Of a DNA stretch of 64,000 nt, positions 1 through 62,530 are shown piece after piece. Both the position numbers and the translations under genes were made by a program. Numbering within the stretch: the first letter of the stretch is position 1; each line of letters begins with the position of its first letter. The DNA is from Marchantia polymorpha subsp. ruderalis (taxonomy: Eukaryota > Streptophyta > Marchantiopsida > Marchantiales > Marchantiaceae), in contig AP031352.1 of NCBI GenBank assembly GCA_037833965.1, positions 27,096,501 through 27,160,500 of the forward strand. Reading direction: 5' to 3'. The notes beneath the pieces were generated by a model. The model did not search any database. It saw nothing but the letters and a program-made list of their open reading frames with translations, and was not told where the DNA came from.

Positions 1-1500
1 ACCGAACTCTCGGGCCAGGTCGAAGATGAAAGCCATGAGGTTGATACTAGAAGAGGACAGCAGCACGGAGAGTATAGTTGCTGCATCGAGAGGACGTCCC
101 ACTCGAGAAGCGAGACCCGAGGCGAATACGGTAAGAGAGAAGGAAGCACCGGCGGGGAAGGGGCCTTGAACTTCTGAGGTAAGGTCGACGCCCGTAAAGC
201 CAAGCCGGGCTACAAGGAAAGACAAGGGAAAAGCTGTCTTGAAGGAGGAAGTATCCCCGAGACATGATGAGGTTCCTTCGGCAGGTATCAGGATGAAGAC
301 CCCTCGGAAGAGAACCACTGAGGTGTTGGTAGTGTCGTCGGACACTGAGGAAGACCTTGCGGCCCTGGAGGAAGTTGTTGTGAAGGCCGTAGAAGACGTA
401 GGTGTAGCCGAGTGTGGACCACAGAAGGTGACATCACCCCGGACGTCCACCAGAATAGTCATATTGAAGACGGGTGAGGATTCTTCAGCGAAAGAGTCAC
501 GGTCACAAGCCTTCAGTGCTGCCGATGTTCTATGTGTGCAAGTAATTCCGTTGCTCCAGTACCTCGACAGGAAGCGGGAGAAGTACACTGGAGCGATCAC
601 CACTGGATCTTACGTGGAGATAGTATGTAACAAGACGCGGACCAAGGTGGCAACGGCTTCCACGGTCGCAATGAAAGAACATAAGTGCCAGTCGACGAGG
701 CGAAGTACCATGTACTTCAAAAGAGGTTGGCCGAGGAAACTGAGAAGCGGAGGTATTTGGAGAAGGCCTGTGATAGTCTTCGTGAGGACGTTGAGAGGGC
801 CAAATGTGTCACCGTGGACCTCATGAGTAGGTTGGAGGCGTGCCGGACTGCCTATAACGCTAAGTCGCTGAGAGTAGATGAGCTGATGGCAGCAGCGGAG
901 AAGGAGCAGGAGTACGATCTCGAGCTGGGAGCGAGGGCGAAGAAGTTAGCCGAGTATGAGGCTGCGCGGATCTCGGACCTAGAGTTAATCAAGAAGCTGG
1001 AGGCTTGGTGCAGCGAGCTGAGGTCACAACAGACGCAAGCTGAGGAGCAGTTATGCGAGATGGAAACAAGATTGATGGAGGCTGAGGGGAAGAATCCGCA
1101 GTTATCCAAACAAGTGCGTGACGCCTTAACCGCGAGGGTGAATCAATGCTTGCACGAGTATGTTTTATGGCAGGTTGAGAGGCACAAATGGCTACGGTTA
1201 CGAGAACTTGAGCATCGTGCGGCGGAATTAATAGTAGGGAGCGGTCGAAGGCAGCATCGGTTAGCCAAGAAGCTCGACGCGTTCCTCTCGAGATCGCGCG
1301 ACGCGATAGTAAATTTGGAGTTAGAGCTAGCGGCCTTTATTAGGTTTAGATCGGATGTTAGAGGGAGCGGCAATTGCTGACTCCGCAAGTGTAGGACTTG
1401 TTAGGAGCTCGCATTAGAGCGAGTGACAGTTTTGTGGTAGTTAGGAATAAAGTAGTCCAAAGCATTGGCCTTGGAGGTCTTTTCTCGATTTAGTTTCTCT
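1..1500 (+). mobile_element. Coiled-coil element, truncated copy 1 (fossil)
   Basis: This is the 3' part of an unclassified repeat family that also occurs at 10971-14376 and 18997-22488. Coding remnants between about 239 and 1380 encode a charged protein. It has an acidic/serine segment, a conserved block including IPLLQYLDRKREKY (compare VPLLKYLDGKRERY and VPLLKYLDKKRGKY in the other copies), and a long Glu/Lys/Leu-rich coiled coil. The tail has an AATAAA-containing block near 1445 followed by a GTCCAA stretch, as in the other copies. No transposase, RT or integrase is visible. The window edge cuts the 5' end and the 3' terminus is not recognisable. It is broken, with at least one break in the remaining coding part. 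Family membership is seen directly; its classification is unknown. Confidence 0.6.
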
Positions 1501-1566
1501 TAGTTTTGAAGTCTGCATTCTCCTTGCGTTGGTGAGTTGAGTGTGTTGGTGTCATGTAGTTTTTAA

Positions 1567-8547: not shown

Positions 8548-9320
8548 TGTTATACCGGATATTGTGTGTGTGAACTAGAACTAGAATTAGCCAAGAAGTT
8601 AATCATGGTTATGATAGTTATGACCAAATCTAGCTAGTTTTGACTAAGTCTAGCTAGTTTAGCTATAATGTCTATACTTGGCGGAATAACTAGAGAAGTT
8701 CTAGAAGATTTGAGTAAGCACTTCTATTTTGTCTTGTACAAAAGTCTAGATACCAAGAGAAAAGACTTATTGGACTTCATGTTTAGTTTTGATTGGTTTG
8801 ACTAAAGTAAGGAGTACTCCATTGGTTAGACTAAGTCTAATGTTGACTTAGTGGAAAGTGGAAGTTCTAGAAGTTAGAAAGGCACAAATGGCATGTCGCC
8901 ACCTCAATCTAGGTATTAGTAAGCATCTAGAAGGTTTAGGAGGCCAATGGCATGTTGCCACATATTGATAACTAGTCAACCTTACTATGGTTTATCTTTG
9001 TAAAAGTAAGTTAGATAGGAATTACCATTTGTTACTATGGTAAATTCTCAAGTAGTATATACAGAGATGTAGGGAAGAGCCTCTCAAGCAAGTTTGGAGA
9101 GTTCATATGTAGAGACTTGTTTCATATATGAAAGAGTGACAAATTTTCAGTAGCTTGGAGTGCCGATGAGTGTGTGAGTTGGATTGATACCCTTGAGAGA
9201 TTGTGTAAGAGGGTGTTTGGGCTATGAGTATGATGCGGAACCCTAGTCTTCTAGATCCATGATGAGCTACCGAAAAGCCATATGAGGTAAACCTGAGTGA
9301 GAGTCAGCCTGGAGGTTGCA
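8548..9320 (+). mobile_element. Solo LTR, family L, copy 1
   Basis: About 773 bp with TG...CA ends (TGTTATACC at the start, GGAGGTTGCA at the end). It is nearly identical, in inverted orientation, to 16211-16981. It interrupts the Ty3 fossil and has no internal region. No clean target duplication is visible at this copy; GGTTGCATGA is repeated just outside its right end. Strand is given relative to the other copy and is arbitrary. Confidence 0.7.
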
Positions 9321-10185: not shown

Positions 10186-10965
10186 TTGACAATGTCGCCC
10201 TCCTCTAGTGTGTCTATGGAGGAGGAATGGGAGCCATTGATTGGTTCCCAGATCACAGGAGGAAAGAGGCGACGATTGACACAATTCCTACGAGACTACA
10301 GGAGTTGTTTTGCTTTCAGTATGAAGGAGTTGGGTGTGTTGATTGGATCCGGTATACGGATAGAATTGGCTAGTGATACGCCAATCTTCCGTCGTCCTTA
10401 TCGATACAGTGAGATGGAGAGGGATTTGATTCAAAGTAGGACGTTGGACCTACTGGAGGCTGGACTAGTGGAGTTATCACATGGTGAGTATGCGTCAGCC
10501 ACTGTCATGCCGGTGAAGAAGGATGTACATGGCAATTACACGGCTAGGCGCATATGTGGAGACTAACGTCATATCAATCGGCAGACGAAGTCCGATAAGT
10601 ATGCCATGCATACAACTGAGGAGATCTTTGATGTGGTGGGACATGCGAGGATTTTTAGTACTTTGGATCTTCGGGCAGGATACCATCAGTTGCCAATTCG
10701 GGAGGAGTACAAGACCAAGATAGCGTTTTGGGGCGTCAACTCCCACGGCAAGGATTATTTGTATCAATAGCGATTCTTACCTTTGGGTTGAAGAATGCAC
10801 CTGCCGAGTTTCATAGGGTTATGGAAAGAATCCTAGCGGGGTTGGATATTGTTAGATGTTACATTGATGATATCTTGGTGTTTAGTGACACTGTGGAGCA
10901 ACACCAGATACATTTGCAGATGTGTTTGAACGGTTGAGAGCTCATGGTTTGAGGTTACATCCTGG
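10186..10965 (+). pseudogene. Ty3 reverse transcriptase, N-terminal part (fossil)
   Basis: Motifs in order are STLDLRAGYHQLPI, LPFGLKNAPAEFHRVM and the catalytic YIDDILVFSD. These identify a Ty3-type RT palm and fingers. The coding text is cut by the coiled-coil element inserted at 10971. It is broken. Confidence 0.85.
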
Positions 10966-10970
10966 AAAGT
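10966..10970. repeat. Target-site duplication AAAGT (left)
   Basis: AAAGT directly precedes the coiled-coil element and is repeated immediately after it at 14377-14381. The pair marks the exact insertion into the Ty3 fossil. Confidence 0.85.
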
Positions 10971-13900
10971 TGTAATGACAGACAAATACCAAAATGGAGC
11001 ATAATGGTACAGATCTGATCCCACGAGGACGGAAACAACCACAAAAGTCACGATTTGTCACAGAATAGCATTCTATTAAAGAGTTTTACTTCTTAGGCCA
11101 CTGCCATTCCCAGAAGACACTACCTAGCTAGAGCCGAAGACCCGTAGAGCAGTGCGTAACCACAACCACAGCCTGAAACTTTTTCAAACACCACCTGTAG
11201 GAATCGCTTGCGACTCCACACTTATATTTTAGGGGAAAAACTTCCCAGCATTGCATACATCTCAACTCACTGACCTGAATACTCAGACCCGAATTTGCTT
11301 AAATCCCAAGGAGCCTCGATCACTAAGGACATTCAAGCCGAATACACACAACTCCTGATGCGGTAACTTCGACAAACAGGAGCGCACCGTGCCCAATGTC
11401 TGGATCACACACCAGCACACAAACACAATGGATACAGGTTTACAGTCAAAACAAGCCAATTGACAGAAAAGCCCCCCAAGGAAAGAGCCTTGGACCTCTT
11501 TATTCACAATGGCAACTCTGGAATATCAACCGCCTGAGGGCGAATCGGTCTTAGGGGCTGTGCCGTCCGACGTAGCGGTTACGGCGTCTTCTGAACTTAC
11601 ATCTACTCCTATCCTACGCAACACGTTTACAATCTCTACTTCCACATTCTGGCGCGCCTCATTCAATCCCTCTGAAAATGTAGAAACTAACTCTACAATC
11701 TGTTTGTGTCCTGCGGATCCGTTGGTCTTCGCGCTCATCAACCGTTGCTCAAGCAAATCAAGCTTCAACCACTCACCGTTTGCAATCTCCACATCGCGAA
11801 TCCGTTCAGACACTTCTTCAAACGCAACTTCAACTCGTCTGTTGACTCCTCCTGTAGCCGATGGTAGGCCTGCTTTGTCTTCTCCATTCTCCTCTGCGAC
11901 TCTTGCGATCTCATCTCTGCCTTTTCTAACTGCTCCCGTAACCGTCGACAGTCAGATTCAAACTTTAATTTACATTCGACCTCCGAAGACCTGGCCGATT
12001 CAAAATCCATCAATTTCTTCGCCCAATCCGCTAACTCTTCTTCCCTGCGATTTTGCCCTGAAGTTCTTTGGCAATACGAACATCTTCAGCTCGTCGGGCC
12101 TCCAGCTTAGCAAGTTCCTTGCTGTAATTCTTCTCTTGCTTCTCCGCTGTGGTGATCAGCCGCTCCGATCGTTTGACTGCTTCATCGTAAGCTTTTCTGG
12201 ATTTTTCCAATCTCGTAATCAAATTCATTGTCACTTTCTGTGCATTCTCATTAGACTTACAAAGTCCACCACAGGTTTCTTCTAACTCTGTACATCGCCC
12301 GGATTCCTTCGCTAGATTCAGCTGCAACACCTCACACTTAGTTTTCTTCTCTCGAAGCTGGGCTTCTCGCTCCTGCAATGTCACCTTCACCGCCGCGCAC
12401 TCGATTGACAAGGTTGCAGCTCGCTCCCGTGCCAATGCAGTCGCGGAATCCCACTCCCTCTTTACAACAACTGCTCTCTTGAGCTTCGTCCTATTCCTAA
12501 TCAACTTTATGTAGAATTCTGACTCCTTTGATAGAGCATATCTCTCTCTCTTCCCATCCAAGTACTTCAACAATGGAACTACACTATCGTGCAAGAAATC
12601 AGGAAATGTTACTTCCAATACCTTCGCATCTTCGCCTGAAGCTTCCTTCTCTTCTTCGGGTCTCACCTCTTCCACCAGAGATGTCGGCAGTGTAATGCCA
12701 TCGGCCTTTACCACCGTCCCTCCAATCCGTGCAACAACCTGCTCCATAATCTCATCACTCAAAGTGGACTCCTTCACCGAGTCCTCGTTCATCTTCAGTT
12801 GTGGTATTTCTTCACCCCGCGCAGACCGCGAAGACAAAGAAATCGGACTTATCAACTCCGTTCCCTCCTTCAAAGGTTCTGCCGGTATATATGCTGGAAC
12901 TTCGATTAACACCCCCCGAAGGTTCTCTTATTTTCACAAGCCACGTCGACTCGCCAGCTGCGACTTCGGATGTATTCACAATTGGTGCCACTGTCTTCTC
13001 TACGCTGCTGTCCGACACTTCAGCTGTCACCATTCTCCAATTCGCCCTCTTCTTTGATCTTGCGCGTGATCTCGGTTGCTTAACTCCATCTAACTCCATG
13101 TCCACCCTTCTCACTTCATGGGCCAATTCTTCTTCGTCATCACTCACTACCTTCCTTCTCTTCGCCAATCGTCTCTCTTGCTTCTCCCGTCTCTGCACCA
13201 CGTCCACCCGAACTGGTCCCCGGGCTGTCGTATGTGTTGGGATTGAGGGAGGTCGGTTCTCGTCTTCGGTCTCTTCACTGGACTCGGCTCTCAAGATTTC
13301 CCTTTCCCTCGGAAATCGCTACTTCTCCTCCCTCGTAAGCAACCCCATTCCTCGATAGAAATTCACTAGAAAGGAAGTGATGTGATGGGTCAAAAGTCCC
13401 GTCCACCGGGAGCCCGCATTCACCTAGACAAGATCGTGAAAGATCCATGCCCAATGTACTCTTCTTCCCTTCAGGATGCGTTCAAAGAACCCTACTTGCA
13501 AGGCCGTCACATATGTCGTGCGCGCCGGCCGCAAGATGTGCATAAGTCCCAAAGCGATCGCCCTTCTCTTCGGATCTTTATAATCGATAGTCTTCCATCC
13601 GTTAGTACCCTGTCTCCCAGACTCGAAGAGAGGCCCTTAAGAGAATTCCTCGACGCGTGTAAGTCCTACACTATTCTTCTCAAATAGAAGATCTCCGTCG
13701 CTGCCCGCACACGGTCCCAATACCTTCGTCCAATGCTCAAAGGTCCACAGAATGGGATTACCGCGAAGCTCCTCGCCTTAACTTGTGCTCTTGTCCATTA
13801 CCTCCTTGTAGATACTCGCCGAGAGGCAATTCCAATTCCACAAAAGGAATTCAAGCTGCTATTCACTTAGCTCGAGTCTGAAGGGTCGCAATTCTTCGTA

Positions 13901-14376
13901 AGGCACCTTCAAGGGAACCAATCTCCTCACCTTCTCACTCTTCTTGGGCGCCATGTCTTCAATTTGCGTTTCGCTACTTGCGAGCTTGGTCGATTTTGCT
14001 TTCTCTCTCTCGCTCGTTCTTGCTCGATATCGCAATGTCGGCACGAGGTCTCCTTGTACTGCCTTTACCTTCAAAGCCCTAACATTGACTCCTCCTGCGC
14101 CCAGTACGACTCCCGACGCGTGCGAACGTCGTCCGGCCCGTTTCGCGATTTGAAATTGATTCCGATGTCTTCGCCGAAGACGCAGCTCTTCGCATGTCCA
14201 GAAAAGGTTGCGCCGAAGGCCCAAAGATCCAAAGATCTTCGGACGTAGACGAATTCTAACTAATTTTATCATTTCTCCTCATAAGCTGCTCATTTTAACT
14301 CTTACAACTACTTTCTAGAAAAATATCTTTTTGTTTTGTTGATTTTTAAAGAAAAACAAAAAAACTAGGCACCACA
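10971..14376 (-). mobile_element. Coiled-coil element, complete-length copy 2 (fossil)
   Basis: This 3406-bp unit is inserted in the Ty3 RT region and flanked by AAAGT on both sides. Read on the minus strand it starts TGTGGTGCCTAG and ends GTCATTACA. I see no long terminal direct or inverted repeats; only a short, imperfect TGTRRTG similarity joins the ends. Coding remnants (14272 down to 11526) begin MAPKKSEKVRRLVPLKVPYE. They continue with a conserved middle (DYKDPKRRAIALG, FYRGMGLLTREE), a basic segment with KRRKVVSDDEEE, the VPLLKYLDGKRERY block and a long coiled coil. An AATAAA block lies at 11499-11504 (as TTTATT on the plus strand). No enzyme domain is visible. It is broken in several places. 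It could be a non-autonomous element moved by another element's proteins. Confidence 0.75.
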
Positions 14377-14381
14377 AAAGT
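14377..14381. repeat. Target-site duplication AAAGT (right)
   Basis: Right-hand partner of the AAAGT at 10966-10970. Ty3 RT text resumes directly afterwards. Confidence 0.85.
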
Positions 14382-15229
14382 GTAAGTTCTTCCAAGAGAA
14401 GGTTGAGTACTTGGGTCATGTGATATACCCAGGTGGTTTAGGAGTTCAGCAAGCAAAGGTGGAGGCTATTGCACGCATCTCTCGTCCCACGGATGTGAGT
14501 AAAGTTCGTGCATTCATGGGTTTGGCGAACTACTACCGGAGGTATGTGAAGGGGTTCATTGCTATAGCCAAGCCTTTGAACCAGTTGCTGAAGTCAGATC
14601 AGCAATGGCAATGGGGAGATGAGCAGGAGAGAGCTTTTGTTGAGCTCAAGTCCAGGTTGATGGCTGCTCCCATCTTCAGATGACCTATCAAAGATCGTCC
14701 ATACCAGTTGCACACTGATTAGAGTATGTTGGGACTTGGAGCGGTGTTGACGCAGTGTGATGATGAGGGCAAGGAGTTTGTGGTGGCGTACGCTAGTCAT
14801 TCGAACAATGCAGCGGAGTCGCAGTATAGTTTGTACGAGGGAGAGTGCTTGGCACCGGTGTGGGCTATGGCACACTTCAGGTGTTACTTGTTTTGTACAC
14901 AGTTCACCCTTGTTACTGATCATCAGCCACTCAAGTGGTTGATGGAGCCCGACAAGCTCATAGGGAAGCTTGCACGGTGGGCTCTCATCTTACACAAATA
15001 CGACTTTCAGGTAGTGCATAGACTTGGAATTGCGAACCTAGATGCCGATGGTTTGAGTTGGAATCCATGCACTAGCGAGGAGGATGACATTGGAGCTAGA
15101 TGGCATGGCGAGGTTGACGAGGAGATGGTGCCTGGTTGGCATGCATCTGCCTTCATGTGTTGGTTACGTGGAGACTCCTGCAAAGAGGATCATCTGACAT
15201 CTGACTCTAGTCAGGGAGTGGATGGTTGA
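14382..15229 (+). pseudogene. Ty3 RT C-terminal part and RNase H (fossil)
   Basis: VEYLGHVIYPGG and RAFMGLANYYRRYVKGF are the RT thumb/connection motifs of Ty3 elements. An RNase H region follows, with LGLGAVLTQCDDEG, AAESQYSLYEGECLA, LVTDHQPLKWL and a terminal HRLGIANLDADGLS. Order and spacing are normal for the family. It is broken. Confidence 0.8.
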
Positions 15230-16210: not shown

Positions 16211-16981
16211 TGCAACCTCCGGGCTGACTCTCACTCAGGTTTACCTCATATGGCTTTTCGGTAGCTCATCATGATTCTAGAAGACTAGGATTCCGCATCA
16301 TACTCATAACCTAAACACCCTCTCACACAATCTCTCAAGGTATCACTCCAACTCATACACTCATCGACACTCCAAGGTACTGAAAATTCGTCACCCTTTC
16401 ATATATGAAACAAGTCTCTACATATGAACTCTCCAAACTTGCTTGAGGGGCTCTTCCCTACCTCTCTATATATATTACTTGAGAATTTATCATAATAACA
16501 AATGGTAATTTTTATCTAATTTACTTTTACGAAGATAAACCATAGTAAGGTTGACTAGTTATCAATATGTGGCAACATGCCATTGGCCCCCTAAACCTTC
16601 TAGATGTTTACTAATCCCTAGATTGAGGTGGCGACATGCCATTTGTGCCTTTCCAACTTCTAGAACTTCCACTTTCCACTAAGTCAACATTAGACTTAGT
16701 CTAACCAATGGAATACTCCTTACTTTAGTCAAACCAATCAAAACTAAACATGAAGTTCAAAAGTCTTTTCTCTTGGAATCTAGACTTTTGTACAAAACAA
16801 AATAGAAGTGCTCACTCAAATCTTCTAGAACTTCTCTAGTTATTCCGCCAAGTATAGACATTATAGCTAAACTAGTTAGACTTAGTCATAACTAGCTAGA
16901 TTTAGTCATAACTATCATAACCATGATTAACTCCTTGGCTAATTCTAGTTTTATTTCACACATGCAATATCTGGTCTTACA
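16211..16981 (-). mobile_element. Solo LTR, family L, copy 2 (inverted)
   Basis: A 771-bp unit with TG...CA ends, flanked by GTTC, inserted in the integrase region of the Ty3 fossil. Its reverse complement matches 8548-9320 along the whole length, by eye roughly 93-95% identical. With no internal region it is best read as a solo LTR left by recombination. The parent family is unknown. Confidence 0.75.
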
Positions 16982-18146: not shown

Positions 18147-18630
18147 TTGGTCACCACACGAGAGGTACTTCGGTTTGTCAAAGATACCGCTTCTGAAGTA
18201 GTAGCCCCAATTCGAATGTTCTGAATAGCGATTGGCTAAAGTCATGATTTAAGCAAATTCGCAATTAGTAGCCGTGTGCAGAATCCGTGAATGTATTCTT
18301 TGGGAATTTTCCCCCCTCAATACTAAGACAAGATCGCGATCGACCTTTGTGTTGCTACATTTGATAATTTCAGGAGTAATGTGTGTATTACGATGCAGTG
18401 AGTGTCCTCTGAGTCGAACACCTGCAATACTTCTGGAGTGACAATGGCCTGAGAATTCAAACTCCTCAAAAGACTGTTAAATACGTGACACTTGGCACTC
18501 TTTGTGTTGCTTCTGTCATCGTGGGATCGGATCTTTACCATTATGCTCCATTTTGGTTTTATCTATCATTACATGTTGAGTGTGTTGTCACCGCGCGAGA
18601 GTTTCTTTGATTTTTCAAAGATACCACATC
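18147..18630 (+). mobile_element. Tail-only fragments of the coiled-coil element
   Basis: 18147-18573 matches the non-coding 3' tail of copies 2 and 3. Shared landmarks are a GTCACC start, TTTGTCAAAGATACCGC, CTTCTGGAGTGACAATGGCC, ACCATTATGCTCCATTTTGG and a CATTACA end. From 18574 the beginning of the same tail (TTGTCACCGCGCGAGAG, CAAAGATACCACATC) starts again and runs into an AT microsatellite. The two tails are therefore stacked head to tail, without coding parts. Confidence 0.6.
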
Positions 18631-18996: not shown

Positions 18997-21900
18997 TGTG
19001 GAGCTTAGTTTTTTTGTTTTTTTTAAATTAACAAAAACTTAAACATATTCGTGTTAGACATATAAGTCCTAAGTGGTAGAAGTTAGAAGAATTATGGAAA
19101 ATTTAGCTACATAGGGAAGGAAAGCAAGATTCGTCTTGGAACGAAGACCTTCAGATCTTTGGACCTTTGGCATAGTCATTTTGGAGGATGCAATAGCCGA
19201 GTCTTCGGCGAAGACGCCGAATTTCAAATTGAATTCGCGAAAGGCTGGTCAATGTTCGCACGCGCCGAGGGTACCAATTCGGACGCGTGAGAGGAATGTT
19301 AGGGCATCGAGGGTAAGGGAAGACGAGGATATTCGCACCGACATTGCAACATTGAGGGAGAACGAGTGAGAGTGAGAGAAAGCAAAATCGATCAACCTTG
19401 ATAGCAGCGAAGACGCGATTTGAAGATATGGCACCACCCAAGGTGCGGAAATTGGTTATGTTGAAAGTGCCATACGAGGAATTGCGACCCTATAGACGGG
19501 AGCTCAGCGAATTGCATCTAGATTTCCTCTTGTGGAATTGGAATTGCGTATCGACGAGCTTTTGTAAGGAGATCATGGACAAGCTCCGGAACGAGGGAGA
19601 GGATCTTTGAAGCAATCCGATGCTGTGGACAATTGAGCACTCGACGAGAGTGCTGGGGCTGTGCGTAGGAAACGACGGGGATTTTATGTTCAAGAAAGAT
19701 AGCGTGAAAATAATCCGCGCGGAAGAATTCACTTTTGCCCCACTCTTCGAGAACGCGTGATCAGGAACAAATGGATGGAAGACCGTGGATTACAAAGATC
19801 CGGTGAGACATGCGATTGCATTGGGAGTCATGCACATCTTGCGACCGCATCGCACGACTTATGTCACTGCTTGGCAGGTTGGTTTCTTCGAGCGCATCTT
19901 GAAGTAAAAGCGAGTACATTGGGCGAGTATCTTTTATGATCTGGTTTGGGTCAATGCGAGTGGCCGATGGGAAGGAGGATTGGTAAATCACCTAACCCCT
20001 TACATCGTGAATTTCTATCGGGGGATGGGATTACTCACGAAGGAGGAGGAGAAGCGATTTCTGAAGGAATGGAAAATTCTGGCAATCGAGTCCAGCAAGG
20101 AGACTGAGGAAGAAGACAATGGTCGAACCGGAGCGCCACCACAGACGACAGCGCGCGAACCAATACAGGTGGATGTTCTGCCAACACGAGAGCGGCCAGA
20201 AAGGCGACTGGCAAAAAGGCGGAAGGTACTGGCAGACGACGAGGAAGACCCACTATTAGAGTCGCGGATGGCAGAGACTGAGATAGTGGGAATCAGGTAG
20301 TCAAGGACTTGAGCTAGAGCGAAGAAGAAAGCGAATCCCATGATGGTTGTGTCAGATTCTTCAGGCAGCAATGTGGAGAAGACAGATGCAACAACTTTGG
20401 CGACGGCTGAAGACAAGAATAACGAGCCTACTCTTCAAGTGTTGGAAGGAGGAACTTCGACGGTACCAGTTGAAGTCCCAACGGAAGTAGCAGTAGATAT
20501 TTTGGAGCAGACGCAATCTGTGGGGAGTGAGTACATACCTCAACTGAAGAGAAGTGAAGAGCTAGCGCAGGAGCTCACGCTGAGTGAGGAAATACTTGAG
20601 CAGATTGTTGCACAGGTTGGCGGGACGGTAGAAGACATCACCGATATTCCAGCGCCGCCACCACCTAAGGAAGAAGTGAGATCCAAAGTTGAGGAGAAGA
20701 CTTCGGAGGAGGGACCGAAAGAGTTAGAGGTTGCCTTCCCTGATTTCTTGCATGATAGCGTAGTACCTTTATTGAAGTACTTAGACAAGAAGAGAGGAAA
20801 GTATATAGTGAGGAGGGAATCTGGATCCTATGTAGAGCTGGTAAGGAGTAGAATTAAGTTCAAGAGTGCAGTGGTAGTGAAGAGGGAGTGGAATTCTGCA
20901 ACTGCGATGACAAAGGAACGAGTTGCAAGCTTGACAGCCGAGTGTGCGACCACGAGGGCGACATTGTAGGAACATGAAGACCGACTCAAGGCAAAGGAGA
21001 TGGAGTGCGAGGTCCTATGATTGAACTTGGTGAAGGAGTCCGATCTTCGCGCGTCATTAGAACATGATTGTAGCAGTCTTCGTACCGCCAACGAGAATGT
21101 ACAGAAGGTAACCGTGAAGTTGTGCGAGAGATTGGAGGCATCCAAGGGAGCCTACACCGCGGAAGTGCAAAGTGTGAAGAAATTGATTATGGCTGTAGGG
21201 AAACGTGATCGGTTGCATGCCAAAGAATTAGCTAAGGCGGAAGTGCGAAGAGTCGAAGAGGCACGGATCGCCGAAGATCTTCAGGGACAGATTGTTGCGA
21301 CGAAGACGGGACACAAATAACTTCAAAGTAGGATCGCGGAGCTCAGAGATGATCGTGACAAGGAATTCAAACACGCAGAGGAGCTTACGGCAAATCTGGC
21401 GGAGGTACTCCGGAAGCACGAAGATGAATTCACGGATTGGGCCAAGAAATTGACAGATTGTGAAGCGAATAGATCTTCGAAGGTCGAATGTAAACTAAGG
21501 TTCAAATCGGAATGTGGACGTATACAGGAGCAGTTGAAGAGAGCTGCTCTGCATCTGGAGGAGTCGCAAGGAAGAGCGAAAAAAGCAAGGGCGACAAACC
21601 GATAGTTGCGGGATGAGACGACTGACAAATTGCGAGTGCGAGTTGAGAAGTGCCTGCGTGGATTTGCAATGTGAGAATTGCAATCGGTTAAGTGGCTGAA
21701 GTTGGATTCACTAGAGCGACATCTGATGTGTGCGAAGGCCAGCGGATCCACGGGGCACAAACAATTAGTAGAATTAGTTCATTCTTTTACTGAGGGATTG
21801 GAAGAGACGCGAGAGAATGTAGAGATAGAGATTGTAAACGTTTTGCGTAGGTTATGAGCCGACCGAAGCTCAGAGGACGTTGTAATCGTTACGTCGGATG

Positions 21901-22488
21901 GCACCGCACCTGAGAGTAATTCACCTCAGGCGGTTGAGATTACTAGGAGATCAGAATGAATAAAGAGGTCCAAGGCTCTTTCCTTGGAAGGCTTTTCTGT
22001 CAAGTGGCTTGTCTTGACTTTCAACCTGTATCCATTGTGTGTCTGTGCGCTTGTGTGTGATCTTGTCACCGAGCATAGTGCGCTCCGGTTTGTCGAAGCT
22101 ACCGCATCTGGAGTTGTGAATATCTAGACTGAATGTATTGCCATGGGTTCTTCGGGATTTAAGCAAATTTGGGTCTGGGTATTCGGGTGAATGAGTCGGG
22201 AATATGCAATTCTGGGAAGTTTCCCCTGAAATCATAGTGTGGGATCCAAGGCGATTCTCACAAGTGTCGATTAGAAAAGTTTCAGGTTGTGAATGTGATT
22301 ATACTCTGCTCTTAGGGCCATCGGCTGTAATTCGAGCAGTGTCTTCTGGGAGTGACATCGGCCTAAGAAGTAAAACTCTTCAATAGAATGTTAATACGTG
22401 ACAAATCGTGACTTTTAGTGTTGCATCTGTCTATGTGGGAACGAATCTATACCATTATGCTCCATTTTAGTATTAGTTGGTTATCATA
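18997..22488 (+). mobile_element. Coiled-coil element, copy 3 (fossil)
   Basis: It begins TGTGGAGCTTAGTTTTTTTG, matching the 5' end of copy 2, and ends near TATCATA at 22488 after ACCATTATGCTCCATTTTAG. Coding remnants from about 19398 to 21900 show MAPPKVRKLVMLKVPYEEL, FYRGMGLLTKEEEKRF, RLAKRRKVLADDEED, VPLLKYLDKKRGKY and a coiled-coil C-terminal half. The AATAAAGAGGTCCAAGG tail block is at about 21958. The flanks (AGCTG and GGGTG) do not give a clean duplication. It is broken in several places and encodes no visible enzyme. Confidence 0.7.
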
Positions 22489-49032: not shown

Positions 49033-49277
49033 TGTTGACATAAAACCAAGAATCATTCAAGCCAAGTACGAAGACACAAGACACTCATATAACGTGGTTC
49101 ATACTTAAGGGCTATGTCCACGGCTGGAACATTGAGCAGGTTTACTGAGAATTGAATACACAAAAAAAAGACTCGAGTAGAAGCCTTCGAGGTATACTTA
49201 TACCCAAAGCCAGCGACACACCTAGCTATTCATAGCTATAGCCTGAGGCTACTCCTTAATCAAAATTAACCTCAACA
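49033..49277 (-). repeat. Copia 3' LTR
   Basis: 245 bp. On the plus strand it starts TGTTGACATAAAACC and ends AATTAACCTCAACA. The polypurine tract AAGGGGGAGATTG lies just inside it on the minus strand (49278-49290 region). Confidence 0.9.
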
Positions 49278-49961
49278 ATCTCCCCCTTAACTCGTGTTAA
49301 GGAAACAGTAAACTCTGTAGCCTATATTATTACTCAACAAAAAGTTCTAGACGGAAACCTAACACAAGGTACCTCTTTAGTAAAGATGTACCTTCTAGTT
49401 AACTCATGTGTAAAGAGTCTTTACACAAGAGTTAACTAGAACCAGACCGTAACCATAACAAGATAGAGTTATAACATAAAGAGGTAAACAGTAAACTTGC
49501 TTGCATAAAAATATCAGAGATCTTGTAATCTATATAATTACTCTGCGTGAAGTTCTAGAAAGAAACTTAAAACAAGTTCTCTCTTTACACAAGAGTTAAC
49601 TATAGCTAAACCGTAGCCATCACAAGATAGAGTAAATATTTAAAAAGATAACTGAAGTTACTAGTTAGCAAATTCTACATGTGCTCCCCATGCACAAACT
49701 ACATGATAGAACAGTGTCGCTTAAAATTCTCCAAAGGAATAACTTTGGTCAAAGCATCAGCTGGATTGAGTACCGTCGATCTTGACTAGCTCAATCGTTT
49801 TATCAGACACTGCTTGTCTGATAAAATGGTACTTGATGTCGATGTGCTTCACTCTGCTATCCATGACCTGCTTCGCAACCAAATGTAAAGCACTTTGGCT
49901 ATCACAATGAAGATTTAACTACACCTTGCTTCAATCCCATTTCCATGATAACCCTATCTAA

Positions 49962-51087
49962 TCAAATAGCTTCCTTTGCCGCTTCTCCTGTTGCCACATA
50001 TTCAACTTCCGTCGTTGACCGAGCTACGCATTTCTGCAAGGTTGACCTCCAACTAATGCTTCCACCGCAAAATGGAAACACATACCTAGTTGTAGATCTA
50101 TTTTTATCTAGATCTTGTCCGAATTTAGCATCAACGTAACCAAACAAGGATTTGGCATTGTTTAATAAACCATCAAACAATAAGCCATAATCCAAAGTAC
50201 TTTCCAAATATTTCATTATCCATTTCACTGCTTTCCAGTGAACTTTACCTAGATTTGACATATACTTGCTCACCTTGCTCATCGCAAAAGCAATGTCCGG
50301 CCTAGTGCACACCATCAAATACATGAGGCTGCATACAGCTTGTTCATAGGGAACACATGACATATTTCCTTTCTCCACAACATCCGTAGGACATTGAGCT
50401 GCAGAGTGCCGCCAAAGAAGTCCATACTCCTTTGGAATCAATCATGTTGAATCTGTCAAGTATACGACGGACATACTTGCCTTGACTCAACCATAGTCTC
50501 TTCTGTTCATGATCCCTATGGATCTCCATGCCTAATATTCTCTTCGACTCCTCCATATCCTTCATCTTAAATGCAGACCTCAACTTACTCTTGCATTCAT
50601 CAACATCGGATTGGTTTTTTGCCAGTATGAGCATGTCGTCAGCGTAGAGTACGAAAATGATGAGATTGAACGTCTCATCATTTACCTTCTTCATGTAGAC
50701 ACAAGGATCATACACGCTCCGTAAAAATCCTTGTGCTTTCATGAACTCATCAAATCAAATGTACATCTCCTCCTCTAAATATCCATAGAGAAAAGTTGTA
50801 ATCACATTCATTTGTATCATAACAAGATCAAATATTGCAGTCAGTGCACATACCATATGAGTTGTAGCATACTTAGCTACCTGTGAGAAAACTTCGTTGT
50901 AGTTCACGCCCTTCTCTTGGGTGAAATCTCTAGCCATCAACCTAGCTTTGAAGATTCTCGCTTCGTCTTCTCCTTGATTGTATTTCAGCTTGTACACCCA
51001 CTTGGAGTCAATCAGCGTTTGATCTGTAGGATACTCAACCAACTTCCAAATCTTATCGTCAATCAGGGATTCCATCTTCCGCTTCAT
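49962..51087 (-). pseudogene. Copia reverse transcriptase and RNase H (fossil)
   Basis: RT motifs include WVYKLKYNQ, KARLMARDFTQEKGVNYNEV and the catalytic VLYADDMLILAK. RNase H follows with GYVDAKFGQDLDKNRSTTRY and a CVARSTTEVEYVA stretch. These are typical of plant Ty1/copia. It is broken. Confidence 0.85.
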
Positions 51088-51114
51088 AGCGGCATTCCAC
51101 TCAAGCTTGTTGAC

Positions 51115-52330
51115 TCAAGCTTGAGCTTTCCTGTATGAAGAAGTCTCAACTTCTTCCAAAATCAACGCCATACCATCCCTATCTTCGACATCAAAGTCAC
51201 AATCTTCTAGAATGGATGAATCTGCCCATACACCATACCTTTTAGGAGCCCTACTAGCACAATGTGATCTCCTAGTAGACGTTTCCGGTTGATCTCTATT
51301 GTCTGAAACTATTGCAATAGGCTCATCAATGATAATTCGCTCATAATCCTCCTGTTCTTGATGCTCCGGTGCTTCTTCTTGTGACAGATCATTACTAATA
51401 TAATGATCAAACTCCCCCACAACGATATCTATGATTGGAAATTTCCCCTTGTCAATACGAGGAGTCTTAGAATTCTCCTCCTGTTTCAATAAGCCAAGCT
51501 CATTGAAAGAAACATCTTGACTGACAATCACCTTACGGGCTAGTGGATCCCATAGTCTATAACCTTTCACTCCACTAGCATATCCAAGAAAACGACATTT
51601 CTTGGACGTATAATCTAACTTAGTTCTGTGCTTCTTTGGTGTAAGAGTATAAGCAGTACACAAAAACCTTCAAGCGACTATAATCCACCATCCGTTTATG
51701 CTTGAGTTCAAATGGTGTGGGAAAATGGAGTGCATTAGAAGGAGAGAGGTTTACCAAATAAACTGCGGTGTTGACAGCTTCAGCCCAAAACTCTCTTGGT
51801 AAACCAGATTCACTTAGCATACTCCGCAACTTCTCCAACACTGTTCTATTGAATCTCTCAGAAACAGCGTTTTGTTGGGGAGTGTAAACTGTGATGAAGT
51901 GACGAGTAATTCCCTCCTCTGTACAATACCTCTGAAACTCTTCAGAAGTGTATTTGCCGCCATTATCTGATCGTAAATATTTTACTCTTTTGCTAGTCTG
52001 AGACTCAACTTGTATGCGCCAAGTTTTGAAGGTGGGAAAGACCTCAGACTTGTGAGTAAGAAAATATTCCCACACAAACCTGGAGTAATCATCTATAAAA
52101 GAAACATAGTAGAGCTTTCTTTAGAGTGAGGCAGTAGGAGATGGACCCCACACGTCACTATGTACATACTCCAGTATCTCCTTGAAATTATGAGTTCCAA
52201 CACCAAAAGCTCGTCTATGTTGTTTTCCCACGATGCAGTGTTCACAAAATGCAAGATCAAGTGTACCCAAACCCGGTAACACTTTTTTTCTCATCAAGAA
52301 GAGACAACTACCTATCACTCATATGGCCTA
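51115..52330 (-). pseudogene. Copia integrase region (fossil)
   Basis: The zinc region (LGTLDLAFCEHCIVGKQHRR) and core (EYVHSDVWGP, YLRSDNGGKYTSEEF, YTPQQNAVSERFNRT) carry the acidic catalytic positions. A GYASGVKGYRLWDPLARKVI segment follows, typical of copia after the integrase. It is broken. Confidence 0.85.
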
Positions 52331-55596: not shown

Positions 55597-55843
55597 TGTT
55601 AACGTAAAACCAAGAATCATTCAAGCCAAGTACGAAGACACAAGACACTCATATAACGTGGTTCACCCTTCGAAGGCTACGTCCACGGCTGGAACACTGA
55701 GCAGGTTTACTGAGAATTGAATACACAAAAAAGAAGACTCGAGTAGAAGCCTTTGGGGTATACTCATACCCAAAGCCAGCGACACACCTAGCTATTTATA
55801 ACTATAACCTGAGGTTACTCCTTAACCGGAATTAACCTCAACA
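55597..55843 (-). repeat. Copia 5' LTR
   Basis: 247 bp, matching 49033-49277. It starts TGTTAACGTAAAACC and ends AATTAACCTCAACA on the plus strand. Confidence 0.9.
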
Positions 55844-55848
55844 ATTGA
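55844..55848. repeat. Target-site duplication ATTGA (right)
   Basis: Right partner of 49028-49032. Confidence 0.9.
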
Positions 55849-58800
55849 TTGTGTTTATAAATTTATATCAAGGAGTTTCCAATTTGATTTAATATATAAA
55901 AAAAAAATTTGATATCATAAAATTGAACTAACCGATTATTTCATACTTCAACATTTCTTATTTCATTCATGTAATGATTTTTGAATCATGGTAAATAAAA
56001 TTAAAGCTTGAGAAAAAATTTGTTTTTATATTTGTGTAATACATCACAACAATTGTTTTGTGTTTGGCAAATAACATGCTTTGTGTTTCAAATGATAAAT
56101 TGATTAACTAATTTTGAATATCTTTTCATACTTGACAGATTGAAAACTTTGATCTTGATACTCAAGCAAAATTCAACTTAGATTGTTTCTGTTATGTTTT
56201 TAAAATAAAATTTTGCTAAAATTTAAACTTTAAGTCAATTTTGAGATTTTAAATTATTTTTACTGGGACTAAAGTTGATGATTTTTTTTGTGAATAGTGT
56301 ATGAGATTGATCAAACTAGTCTCTTTGAAAATTTTATGATGATATATTTCTATCAAAATCAAAAATATGATTCGGAGTTGAAAATTTGACCTTGTAATCT
56401 ATACGTTAATTCAAAATTGAGAATTTTGATAAATTAATTGAGACATTTAAATTTATTAATAAATTAAAAATTCTACAAATATATTCAATCATTGTGATAG
56501 TGTTGTAAAAAAAATTGTATAACATATTACCACTTAGGAACTAAAAATTATATTTTTGTGAAAAAAAATTTCAAACTTGATGAAGGTTCAAATTTGATGC
56601 AATGTAATATATATATACAATGCAACCTATATATTGTGTCATTGTTTTTTCATTGTCATCACTTTTATATAATATTTATAGGTTATCTATAACATTCTTT
56701 TGTAAATAATAAAAATTTATCTGAGATTCAAATAATAAAATATATCATTTGAAACATGATGATATCATATCAAATTTCATATCGATTGAAACTTAAATTC
56801 AAATAATAAATTTTATCACTTGAAAATTTGATATCGATTGAAACTATGTCTGAAGAATTGTAAACATAATACAGTATATATAAAAATATGATATATTTTA
56901 ATAATAACATGTAATTTTGTAATATCAGCTTGCCAAAATTTTAAAAAAGTATTGGAAAAAAAATGATTTATTTGTAAAATGTTATATTAAATTTATATTA
57001 AAATTATCATAATGGGATAAAATTTAGTATAATAAATGTAATTTATGAATAAGTGTTATAAAAAATATATGTATGTTTTTGTGTCAATTGTCATTCATAA
57101 TGCATAATGTAATAAAAAAAATTCAACTTATTGGAAAATTCTAATTTATGCTTTCTTTGCAAGGTTTTTAATTGTGTTTTTTATACCATATTATTCATAT
57201 GAGAGTATATTGAGTGTGATTATTGTAAGATACAAATAAATATCAAAGTTAACATAAATGTAGAGATAAATTTCAATATTAAATCAATACAGATTGTTAA
57301 AATATCAAAATATTGTGATTTTTTCAAATCATGAAATTATATATGTATGACTTATAAATTATTAAAAAAATCTCATGAGAAATAAATATGTTAGCATTCA
57401 TCACTAAAAAAAATCCTATATCAAATAATTAAAAATTTAATAAAAATATCAATTATATATGATTGAATATGTCAAATTAATTAAAAAAATTTTGTTAATA
57501 ATTTTAAATTTATAAATGGTTTGATTATATATATATATATATATATATATAAGTTTAATTTCCAAATCTCAAAAAATGAAGCAAAAAAATATAATTGTTA
57601 TATCTCAAGAGAAAAAAAATATCAAAGTATGAAATCTACAAACCAAATAATATAATCCAAAAATTTTAAAAAAATTGATCATTAAGTAACATTTCAAAAC
57701 GAAATTGGTATATTATGACTTCACTAGTTGAAAAGATATTTCAACCTACTAATAGATATACTACATATCTCTCTTGTTAGTACTTGATAACGATATATCA
57801 TAAGAAAAACAATCACTTCAATTTTGTATAAACTCTATTTATAATATATATCTTCGAACTATTATTTCTTCATAATTAAACACAATCTACATGACTAGAT
57901 ATAGTACAAAGTAAGAACAAAACAACAAGAAACCCTCTCCAATCAGAAATCTTTTCTCTTATCCGACAATTTTGTTTGATGGTATATACTTTCAGAACAC
58001 CACTCCCATGACAATTTTCATAACCCCAAACTCCAAGTGCAAATTACAGAAACCAACATATGCAACACCCCAAGATTTAAGATGTCAACACAGATCACAA
58101 TGAAAACGCCGTAGCTACCAACACTTCAAATTCCTTCCAATCAAGCAGGAGCAAACTAAAACTCACGGAATGATGCATTTGGCCAACGCGAATGCCATTC
58201 CTAAACAATGAATGCGAAAATCGCCAGGACTTCACTAATCTTCAAACCATATTTGCAACGGCAGGTCACAGGAAGAGACTACTCCTTGCGACAAGACAAA
58301 ATATGTCCTGTCGTTTACTGGAATGAAATAGATATCTTACTGCTTTACCTCATGCATTCAAATGCCTACACAAGGCTAGATAACGACCAAGGAAAATATA
58401 CATGGTCATGCGATTCAAACCGAAACTATATAAGAGAGGTCAAGTTTTCGAATGGAGAATTTACCGTCGGAACTCAAACGTAGATTCAGAGAATTGACAT
58501 ACTGACAAAAGAAATTCATTCTTGTTATCTCCACTTGCACGATTACTTTTTGATACGCAGAGGCACTAGTCCGATCAGGATCGTTCGAGGTGAAATAGGA
58601 AGTCTTCCGGGGTCTTTGTTGGAGGCAAGACTTCAAACTCCACATTAAAATGCCGTGAGACATTTACCGCCACTCTCAGTTTGCCATCGCGCTCTCAGCC
58701 GAACAAGAATGACTTGCTTCCCACAAGCCCAACACCTTTTTTTGTATAATCCGTTCGACAATCGACACGTTCGACAATAGGGATCTGATTCGCTATCACT

Positions 58801-60791: not shown

Positions 60792-61400
60792 TCATGTGCA
60801 ACAGCCTTGCTTTTGGGCGAGGGGCTGGCCCTTCATTTGCACTGTCGCGGGCTTGCTGCTGTTCATGGTCGGTTGGCTCGCCATCCTATTCTTGATCTCC
60901 GCTGCCATGGTCATGAACGCCTGCTCCACGTTCGTGGCATTCTTTGCACTGGTCTCCAAAAAGGGGATTCCCACTTCATCGGCAAACGCCTTAGCAGTCG
61001 CTGAATCGACTACCTTTTTGCTGGTGAGATCTGACTTGTTGCCCACCAACAGCTTGTTCACGTTCTCGCTTGCATACCGGTCAATCTCATTCAACCACTG
61101 TTTCACGTTATTGAAGCTCTCTTGATCTGTGACATCGTACACAACGATAATTCCATGAGCCCCGCGATAGTAGCTGCTCGTGATCGTCCTAAAGCGCTCT
61201 TGGCCGGCAGTATCCCAAATCTGAAGCTTGATAGTCTTGCCATCCAGTTCCACCGTACGAATTTTAAAATCCACGCCGATCGTACTTATGTAGCTCTCCA
61301 AATACGAATCATCCGCAAACCGGAGAAGCAAACATGACTTTCCTACTCCGGAGTCTCCGATGAGCAAGAGCTTGAAGAGGTAATCATACTCGGGATTCAT
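60792..61400 (-). CDS. RAB1: Rab1/RabD-type small GTPase, intronless
   Basis: An intact 202-residue Rab, the normal length for Rab1/RabD. GTP-binding motifs are GDSGVGKS (15-22), Thr40 in switch I ([13 protein letters not shown]), WDTAGQE (62-68, catalytic Gln67), NKSD (121-124) and ETSAK (149-153). The C-terminus ends GCCT, a two-cysteine prenylation site for membrane attachment. The start chosen is [10 protein letters not shown], the family N-terminus; a 24-codon in-frame upstream extension is Arg/Glu-rich leader. Rab1/RabD proteins control ER-to-Golgi vesicle tethering. The coding region has no intron, whereas flowering-plant RabD genes are usually split into many exons, so this may be a functional retrocopy or a lineage-specific intronless gene. 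I see no poly-A remnant or flanking duplication. Confidence 0.93.
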
Positions 61401-62530
61401 CCTTCCTTCTGGCCGGCGACGAACTGCTTCCCTCCCTCTCTCCCTCCTCTCGGGCTCGCTCCAAAAACACACACCACCAACTCGCTCTCCTCGTCTAGCG
61501 TCGCGCCCCTCCCTTCCCTCGAACCCCGCTTCCGTCTCCTGCCTGCCCTTCCTTGCCCTCCTTGCTCTCCGACTCGCACCCGCCCGTAATCCCTACACAC
61601 TCCTGTCCGCCTTACGACTATGCAACTCCCTCTCGCCTGCCTTGCGTCGCCTTCCTCGAATGTGTGGCCGCGGACGTGGTCGCCCCTCCCTTGCTTCGTG
61701 CTCGCGTGCGTGCGCGCGTGCGTGCGTCTGCGCGCAGAGTGTTCGATCAGTCGATCCCTCGATCCCTCGATCAATCAATCAATCAGTCCAAAAACGCCAG
61801 ACACCCGCCCCGGCGCCACTACCGTCAGAAAAACGGGGGATGGGGTGGGATGGGATGGGACGAGACGAAAGAATGTATAAGAACGCAAGCCAAGTGAGGC
61901 GCGAGTGAAGGCGTGAGGCGAAGCACAGGCCCAGAAAGCAAAGCAGCAACAACAATAACAACACAACAACAACAAGCACAAGCAGAAGCAGCAGAACAAC
62001 GCACCGGACACGATGCCAGACACAACAGCGCTCGCACAAAAGATCAGATCACTCGCAGCTTCCGAAGTCTCGCCTGCGCCCTCCTTCCCTCCCTTCCTTC
62101 CTTCCTTCCGGACCCCTTTCCCTGGAGTCCCGTCCCTTCCCTTCCTTTCCCTTCCCTTGCCTTCTGACCCGACCCGTTACTTGGTCCAGCGTGCTCCTGC
62201 GCAAGGCGACCCACACTTTAGGGTTATGCCCGTTCTATTCCGACGGGCGTTGGCCACTTTCATCGTTTTCCTTCCGTTCTTTCCGTCGGTTTGAAGTAAA
62301 GTCTTCTCTCTCCGTCCCATCTGCTCGCTTCCTTTGGCTCCTCCTCTTTTGGAGTCAACGAGTTAATAGTTCGGTGGAGATCTGGCCGGCAGCTTTTCTC
62401 TCCTCCTCGTTTGTCTCTTTCGGCCCTCCGTTATTTTTAGCCTTGCTCACCTCAATGAACGTTACGTCCAAGTCGTATCACCTCACCGCTTACGTGAGCT
62501 CGTGGTCTTTCGAACATCTATAAATATGGT
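61401..62530 (-). promoter_or_regulatory. Rab 5' leader/promoter region, GA/CT-rich
   Basis: The coding strand upstream of the start is GA-rich, with many GGGA/GAGG words. It holds a TGAT/CGAG tandem run (about 61748-61785) and GTT repeats (about 61945-61980). A TATTTATAG string on the minus strand at about 62518-62526 could be a TATA box; if so, the leader is about 1.1 kb and could contain an intron. Long open frames here on both strands are composition artefacts. Confidence 0.4.

What the first reader, a model, noticed from the sequence alone, without database searches (positions are those of the whole stretch)
10971..14376. Unclassified coiled-coil-encoding mobile element with precise ends and a 5-bp target duplication
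The unit is flanked by AAAGT on both sides, so it moved as a discrete 3406-bp piece. Yet it shows no LTRs, no long inverted repeats, no poly-A end and no enzyme. Its ends are TGTGGTG... and ...CATTACA. It encodes a protein with a conserved N-terminal region, a basic KRRKV-type segment, a PLLKYLDGKR block and a long coiled coil. Copies at 1-1500 and 18997-22488 share the protein and the tail. This does not match a standard class that I can name.
Basis: partly seen in the sequence, partly recalled or inferred. Interest (0 to 1): 0.7.

Follow-up and report, generated by a model that had tools for sequence, protein, structure and literature searches.

The report
Solo LTR carrying a coiled-coil gene
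The piece is the leftover end repeat (solo LTR) of a roughly 13-kb plant retrotransposon, which is ordinary, but the end repeat itself carries a long conserved protein gene, which is unusual for plants.

Summary
In detail: a discrete 3406-bp piece (minus strand TGTGGTG...CATTACA) sits between two AAAGT copies and splits the reverse transcriptase of another Ty3/gypsy element. The reading "unclassified" is wrong. The host genome holds 596 such 3' ends (up to 3 mismatches). Of 24 complete copies examined, 20 stand alone with their own 5-bp duplication. Others lack it and instead adjoin a primer site matching host tRNA-Asp, or follow a purine tract. Between such pairs lies a ~6.1-kb internal region with gag, protease, RT, RNase H and integrase. 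The unit is therefore a solo LTR of a Ty3/gypsy element with 3.5-kb LTRs, probably left by LTR-LTR recombination. What remains unusual: the LTR carries a sense ORF of about 850 codons (N-terminal region, basic segment, long coiled coil) whose TGA stop overlaps a conserved AATAAA (22 of 24 copies). Codon statistics show past selection on the protein. No Pfam family matches it. The plant surveys I read in part describe extra ORFs as internal. Every copy sampled is broken, and its function is not shown.

The parts
10971..14376 (-). solo LTR, family A (TGTGGTG...CATTACA on the minus strand)
   Evidence: the same ends are joined to PBS or PPT in other copies
10966..10970 (.). target site duplication AAAGT (one copy)
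14377..14381 (.). target site duplication AAAGT (other copy)
11504..13954 (-). LTR-borne ORF region, disrupted here (about 850 codons in the family; ATG of MAPKK at 13954, TGA at 11504-11506), sense with respect to gag-pol of complete relatives
   Evidence: codon-position pattern
12034..12912 (-). longest open stretch of the window copy (293 aa): PLLKYLDGKR block and start of the coiled coil; helix predicted for residues 129-291
12036..12043 (-). 8-bp microhomology at a deletion of about 120 bp in this copy
11499..11504 (-). AATAAA 522-541 bp before the LTR 3' end in 23 of 24 complete copies; overlaps the TGA of the ORF
10731..10970 (+). left part of the interrupted gypsy X reverse transcriptase (stretch used in the empty-site test)
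14382..14621 (+). right part of the interrupted gypsy X reverse transcriptase (stretch used in the empty-site test)
   Evidence: RNase H part follows at 14726-15229
18997..22477 (+). related LTR, family B (69-75% identical in the longer DNA-alignable parts, same ORF, 3' terminus decayed)
1..1550 (+). part of a more distant related LTR, family Y, with a related coiled-coil ORF (starts before the window)
18147..18573 (+). rest of the same family Y LTR, ending TATCATTACA

Best explanation
The unit is a solo LTR of a Ty3/gypsy retrotransposon whose complete form is LTR (3.5 kb) - PBS for tRNA-Asp - gag - protease - RT - RNase H - integrase - PPT - LTR (3.5 kb), about 13 kb in all. Shown: ends, 5-bp duplications, insertion into the RT of another gypsy element, and paired LTRs around PBS, gag-pol and PPT. 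Inferred: the stand-alone copies arose when the two LTRs of an inserted element recombined, deleting the inside and leaving one LTR between the original 5-bp duplication. The LTR also carries a sense ORF of about 850 codons (N-terminal region, basic segment, long coiled coil) whose stop overlaps AATAAA. Codon statistics show that it was conserved as a protein while source elements were active. Its role (an accessory protein made from the LTR) is inferred.
For: TSD: of 24 complete copies among 30 fetched loci, 16 have 5/5 identical flanks and 4 have 4/5; 2 have 3/5; the last 2 do not match, of which L011 is preceded by the PPT and L018 followed by the PBS leader. Of 12 further copies or fragments shown, five stand-alone full copies have 5/5. 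26 LTR-PBS junctions and 33 PPT-LTR junctions genome-wide at up to 3 mismatches, controls 0. The PBS matches the 3' end plus CCA of host tRNA-Asp(GTC) over 18 nt in L044, with one mismatch in L042 (two of the 33 tRNA sites were checked by ARAGORN). In one element (L034/L035) both outer flanks read ATGCT. LTR pair L041/L042 is 88.9% identical over 3571 columns. Pfam, pieces of two elements (L040, L034): Retrotrans_gag 2.2e-7, zf-CCHC 2.4e-5, Asp_protease_2 1.8e-5, RVT_1 6.6e-12 and 1.6e-12, RT_RNaseH 1.5e-22, Integrase_H2C2 2.2e-14, rve 2.1e-13. LTRs of complete elements are scattered among the stand-alone copies on the tree (5 label changes, all forced by starred branches). ORF: Ka/Ks 0.21 and 0.31-0.32 for family B against A (Ks 1.1-1.3, near saturation); per-column excess of differences at third positions p 6e-16 and 1.5e-8 in the two ORF halves, no position significant in leader or tail.
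Against: One paired element (L041/L042) has no matching outer duplication (ATGAC against GGTCG), so it may be a recombinant. In L043/L044 the 3' LTR is incomplete in the stretch fetched. Stand-alone ends far outnumber junctions with an inside (596 against 26 and 33; mismatch limits are equal but pattern lengths differ), which is a high ratio. None of the 24 complete copies has an uninterrupted LTR ORF (longest open stretch 524 codons), and the gag-pol frames seen are broken. Labels on the tree were somewhat clustered (33 and 36 of 500 shuffles as low), in part because two elements contribute both of their LTRs. In the pooled table the tail also showed one raised position (0.115 against 0.087 and 0.089), which the per-column test does not support.
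Confidence: 0.94

Rival explanations
1. The unit moves on its own as a non-autonomous element that borrows the integrase of the complete element (stand-alone copies are direct insertions, not recombination products).
For: The ratio of stand-alone ends to complete junctions is high (596 against 26 and 33). Label clustering on the tree is slightly stronger than in most shuffles (33-36 of 500 as low). A unit with both LTR ends could in principle be integrated if made as DNA.
Against: The unit alone has no PBS or PPT, so no route is evident to make its DNA by reverse transcription. Stand-alone copies are interspersed with LTRs of complete elements. PPT-LTR junctions are over-represented on the small contig C1 (24 of 33, against 28 of 89 exact 3' ends; Fisher p 6.6e-5; exact PPT 8 of 8, p 2e-4), as expected if complete elements survive where recombination is rare. 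But the two sets have different mismatch limits, and the PBS junctions do not show it clearly (14 of 26, p 0.06; exact 5 of 11, p 0.50).
Confidence: 0.05
2. A new class of DNA transposon with TGT...ACA ends and a coiled-coil transposase.
For: Short inverted similarity of the ends (TGTGGTG / TGTAATG) and a 5-bp duplication.
Against: The same ends bound complete Ty3/gypsy elements with PBS, PPT and gag-pol. No transposase family matches the ORF.
Confidence: 0.01
3. The LTR ORF is not a gene: open stretches are chance or composition-driven.
For: No sampled copy is fully open, no significant Pfam match, no transcript data.
Against: Third codon positions vary most in one frame, inside the ORF only. 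Ka/Ks is 0.21-0.32 between families A and B. The stop position relative to AATAAA is the same in 22 of 24 copies. Protein similarity reaches family Y, where the DNA barely aligns (25-48% identity in matched stretches, E down to 1.6e-29).
Confidence: 0.03

Closest known systems
Plant Ty3/gypsy non-chromoviruses of the OTA group (Athila/Tat; Neumann et al. 2019, PMC6317226, passages read)
   Same: 5-bp TSD, long LTRs (the paper: non-chromovirus elements up to about 24 kb, LTRs up to about 5 kb), primer tRNA other than Met (Asp among those listed), an extra ORF besides gag-pol
   Different: The extra ORF lies in the LTR; [quoted passage not shown] No plant mobile domain, Transposase_28 or Athila ORF-1 match. 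RT phylogeny was not tested here.
Additional ORFs (aORFs) of plant LTR retrotransposons: Grande, RIRE2, Retand and others (Vicient and Casacuberta 2020, PMC7264820, part 1 of 3 read plus a term search; Retand paper PMC11963269, passages read)
   Same: Extra protein of unknown role kept in most copies; for Athila gag and env-like ORFs purifying selection has been reported (PMC2410132, passages read)
   Different: Those are described as lying in the internal region, most often between pol and the 3' LTR, in sense or antisense. This one is sense and LTR-borne, so it is present twice per complete element and is kept in solo LTRs.
MMTV sag/naf ORF in the U3 of the LTR (PMC9412291, passages read)
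   Same: An accessory protein encoded inside an LTR of a retroelement
   Different: Vertebrate retrovirus; no sequence relation was tested or claimed; Sag is a superantigen

Membership tests
LTR of an LTR retrotransposon | TG...CA ends | tested here: met
   31 of 33 full-length rows (L009 starts GG, L022 ends AA)
LTR of an LTR retrotransposon | present twice, in direct orientation, around an internal region | tested here: met
   L041/L042 88.9% over 3571 columns; L043/L044 92.8% over 2321 (3' LTR incomplete); L034/L035 89.2% over 656 (3' LTR partly deleted)
LTR of an LTR retrotransposon | PBS just inside the 5' LTR complementary to a host tRNA | tested here: met
   26 junctions; 18-nt match to tRNA-Asp(GTC) in L044
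LTR of an LTR retrotransposon | polypurine tract just before the 3' LTR | tested here: met
   33 junctions GGGGAGAGGAGTA|TGTGG at up to 3 mismatches, control 0
Solo LTR | single LTR between a target duplication, no PBS or PPT adjoining | tested here: met
   window unit and 19 of the other 23 complete copies (at most 1 mismatch); five
Ty3/gypsy superfamily | gag, then protease - RT - RNase H - integrase in this order | tested here: met
   L040 and L034/L035 internal pieces
Ty3/gypsy non-chromovirus (OTA: Athila/Tat) | no chromodomain after integrase | tested here: inconclusive
   no chromodomain match in the pieces scanned, but the last 45 aa of the integrase frame of L034 were not scanned and frames are broken
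Ty3/gypsy non-chromovirus (OTA: Athila/Tat) | placement in RT-RH-INT phylogeny | not tested
   no reference set of lineages at hand
Tat | additional RNase H domain (aRH) | tested here: inconclusive
   not seen in the scanned pieces; not every stretch was scanned
Known plant extra-ORF families (plant mobile domain, Transposase_28, Athila ORF-1) | match to the Pfam models | tested here: not met
   none of these among the matches of 9 members of alignment A1 with the limit set at E 10 (HMMER's filters drop most matches above about 0.1), nor

The most novel reading that the evidence does not exclude
A plant retrotransposon lineage has moved a protein gene into its LTR, so that each LTR, and each solo LTR left behind, is a complete gene cassette (leader, ORF, poly(A) signal overlapping the stop). 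The coiled-coil protein would act in trans for the elements, for example in nuclear export, particle assembly or evading silencing, and solo LTRs could go on supplying it after the rest of the element is lost.
Probability: 0.25. Interest if true: 0.72.

Novelty: new variant of a known kind. Interest (0 to 1): 0.45.

Why it matters
It turns an apparently unclassifiable element into a classified one, which bears on the annotation of several hundred copies in this genome. It also shows an LTR that carries a long protein gene related across three LTR families. In the surveys of plant elements that I read in part, extra ORFs are described as internal. An LTR-borne gene is copied twice per element and outlives it as a solo LTR, so it offers a test of whether solo LTRs can remain genes.

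Tried and rejected
Considered and rejected: DNA transposon; TRIM or TR-GAG type small element (the complete form has 3.5-kb LTRs and gag-pol); LTR pair formed by two neighbouring copies on C8 (10.5 kb apart, same strand): each has its own duplication, AAAAC and AAACG, and the identity is only 77%, so they are two independent insertions. The two 3' ends 7 kb apart at C1:5072484/5079526 were likewise no LTR pair: the first copy has its own AGAGG duplication. The copy in L037 begins its 3' flank like a complete element (TAGATAAATTTTTCTTTTG) but the primer site itself is changed, and it was not counted.

Led nowhere: Pfam and PDB sequence searches with the LTR ORF (best 0.035 and 0.034, not significant); paper searches for an ORF inside a plant LTR, which gave the MMTV case but no plant case in what I looked at (listings, and passages of a few papers). 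A first tRNA-Asp pattern had one base too many and found nothing; the corrected pattern found 33 sites. Dating was not attempted for want of a rate. No transcript evidence was available, so promoter, R region and splicing are unknown.

Dropped rows: 6 of the 30 loci (L002, L020, L024, L026, L028, L029) lacked a complete LTR and were left out of the counts; in the tree L003 and L014 (3/5 duplications) carried no label. Of 1300 candidates, 39 were scored; the sample therefore favours copies closest to the window unit.

Full report
Check of the observation. The piece at 10971-14376 reads TGTGGTG...CATTACA on the minus strand and is bounded by AAAGT at 10966-10970 and 14377-14381. Taking the piece and one AAAGT out gives an unbroken stretch of a Ty3/gypsy reverse transcriptase (...LRAHGLRLHPGKCKFFQEKVEYLGHV...), while keeping both AAAGT copies breaks the frame. 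The RNase H part of that interrupted element follows at 14726-15229 (RT_RNaseH 5.7e-29). So the boundaries are exact.

Genome copies. The window lies in a 241.5-Mb assembly of nine contigs. A 27-base pattern of the 3' end has 596 matches at up to 3 mismatches and none for the reversed control. Of 30 loci cut from the best matches, 24 hold a complete copy (3406-3582 bp). Of these, 16 have identical 5-bp flanks, 4 differ at one base, 2 at two bases, and 2 do not match. Of 12 further copies or fragments looked at, five are full stand-alone copies with identical flanks. Flanks differ from copy to copy, so these are independent insertions.

What the unit is. The two copies without a duplication explain it. 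L018 is followed by TAGATAAATTTTTCTTTTGGCGCCGCTGCC. L011 is preceded by GGGGAGAGGAGTA, the polypurine tract. Genome-wide, 26 LTR-PBS and 33 PPT-LTR junctions match at up to 3 mismatches, controls 0. The primer site TGGCGCCGCTGCCGGGGA (L044) is the reverse complement of the 3' end plus CCA of the host's tRNA-Asp genes (33 sites; two checked, both anticodon GTC). Between the paired copies lie about 6.1 kb (L040) with gag, CCHC knuckle, aspartic protease, RT and integrase; RNase H was matched in the pieces of L034. The order is that of Ty3/gypsy and the frames are broken. LTR pairs are 88.9%, 92.8% (partial) and about 89% (partial) identical. The outer flanks of L034/L035 agree (ATGCT); those of L041/L042 do not. 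The unit is thus a solo LTR.

How solo copies arose. Recombination between the two LTRs of one insertion is the standard route (general knowledge) and fits here: the single LTR keeps the original duplication, and stand-alone copies and LTRs of complete elements are mixed on the tree (34 rows: 25 solo, 7 from five complete elements, 2 unlabelled; 5 changes, all forced by starred branches, against a shuffled mean of 6.5, with 33-36 of 500 shuffles as low). The ratio is high. Complete junctions are relatively more common on the small contig C1 for PPT (24 of 33 against 28 of 89 exact 3' ends, p 6.6e-5), less clearly for PBS (14 of 26, p 0.06; exact matches only 5 of 11, p 0.50). This fits slower loss on a chromosome that recombines little, but the sets differ in mismatch limits and perhaps in age.

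The LTR-borne gene. The LTR has a leader of about 425 bp and an ORF of about 850 codons. The TGA stop begins two bases before AATAAA (TGAATAAA) in 22 of 24 copies; L015 lacks the AATAAA, and in L016 the matched part ends early and the stop read lies two bases after its start. AATAAA lies 522-541 bp before the 3' end in 23 of 24. The ORF runs in the same direction as gag-pol. No sampled copy is open throughout (longest open stretch 524 codons). Substitution statistics show past selection on a protein: Ka/Ks 0.24-0.76 within the sampled family and 0.21-0.32 against family B, whose Ks of 1.1-1.3 is near saturation. Per alignment column, third positions differ more than the others in both ORF halves (p 6e-16 and 1.5e-8) and no position stands out in leader or tail (p 0.3 or more). 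The pooled table had shown one raised position in the tail, which this test does not support. Family Y, hardly alignable as DNA, encodes a related protein (25-48% identity in matched stretches). The 293-aa open piece of the window copy is predicted to hold a 163-residue helix (mean pLDDT 70, single sequence). Pfam and PDB sequences give no significant match.

Nesting in the window. Family Y LTR (1-1550 plus 18147-18573) was split by gypsy element X, with TTGG(T) on both sides; the homologue in L045 reads through the site. The unit later entered X's RT. Family B (18997-22477) lies beside them.

Known and new. Extra ORFs in plant LTR retrotransposons are well known. The survey PMC6317226 and the review PMC7264820 describe them upstream or downstream of gag-pol, the review explicitly in the internal region (passages of the first; part 1 of 3 and a term search of the second). 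I found no plant case of a conserved ORF inside the LTR in searches, which cover only the open-access library and exact phrases. MMTV encodes Sag and Naf in its LTR.

Noticed in passing
1-1550 and 18147-18573: One family Y LTR split by a gypsy element X (about 16.6 kb including the unit) with TTGG(T) on both sides; a homologue elsewhere (L045) reads through the site.
   Followed up: partly
G000 contig C1 (5.6 Mb): 28 of 89 exact 3' ends and 24 of 33 PPT-LTR junctions lie on this contig, which is 2.3% of the assembly; possibly a sex chromosome (inference).
   Followed up: partly
whole genome: 1361 sites resemble the tRNA-Asp primer site at up to 3 mismatches; in the part listed, many read TTTTTGGCGCCG, so other families may use the same primer.
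   Followed up: no
8548-9320 and 16211-16981: 94% identical inverted repeat of about 770 bp inside gypsy element X.
   Followed up: no
60792-61472: Uninterrupted Rab-type GTPase ORF (226 aa, Ras family 1.7e-68); no intron visible, so it may be a retrocopy or an intronless gene.
   Followed up: no
49962-52075: Fragments that look like a Ty1/copia pol on the minus strand (read by eye from the ORF list; not scanned).
   Followed up: no
49033-49279 and 55597-55845: 92% direct repeat of about 250 bp bracketing those pol fragments, possibly their LTRs.
   Followed up: no
56001-58000: Very low G+C (0.199) in this 2-kb bin.
   Followed up: no
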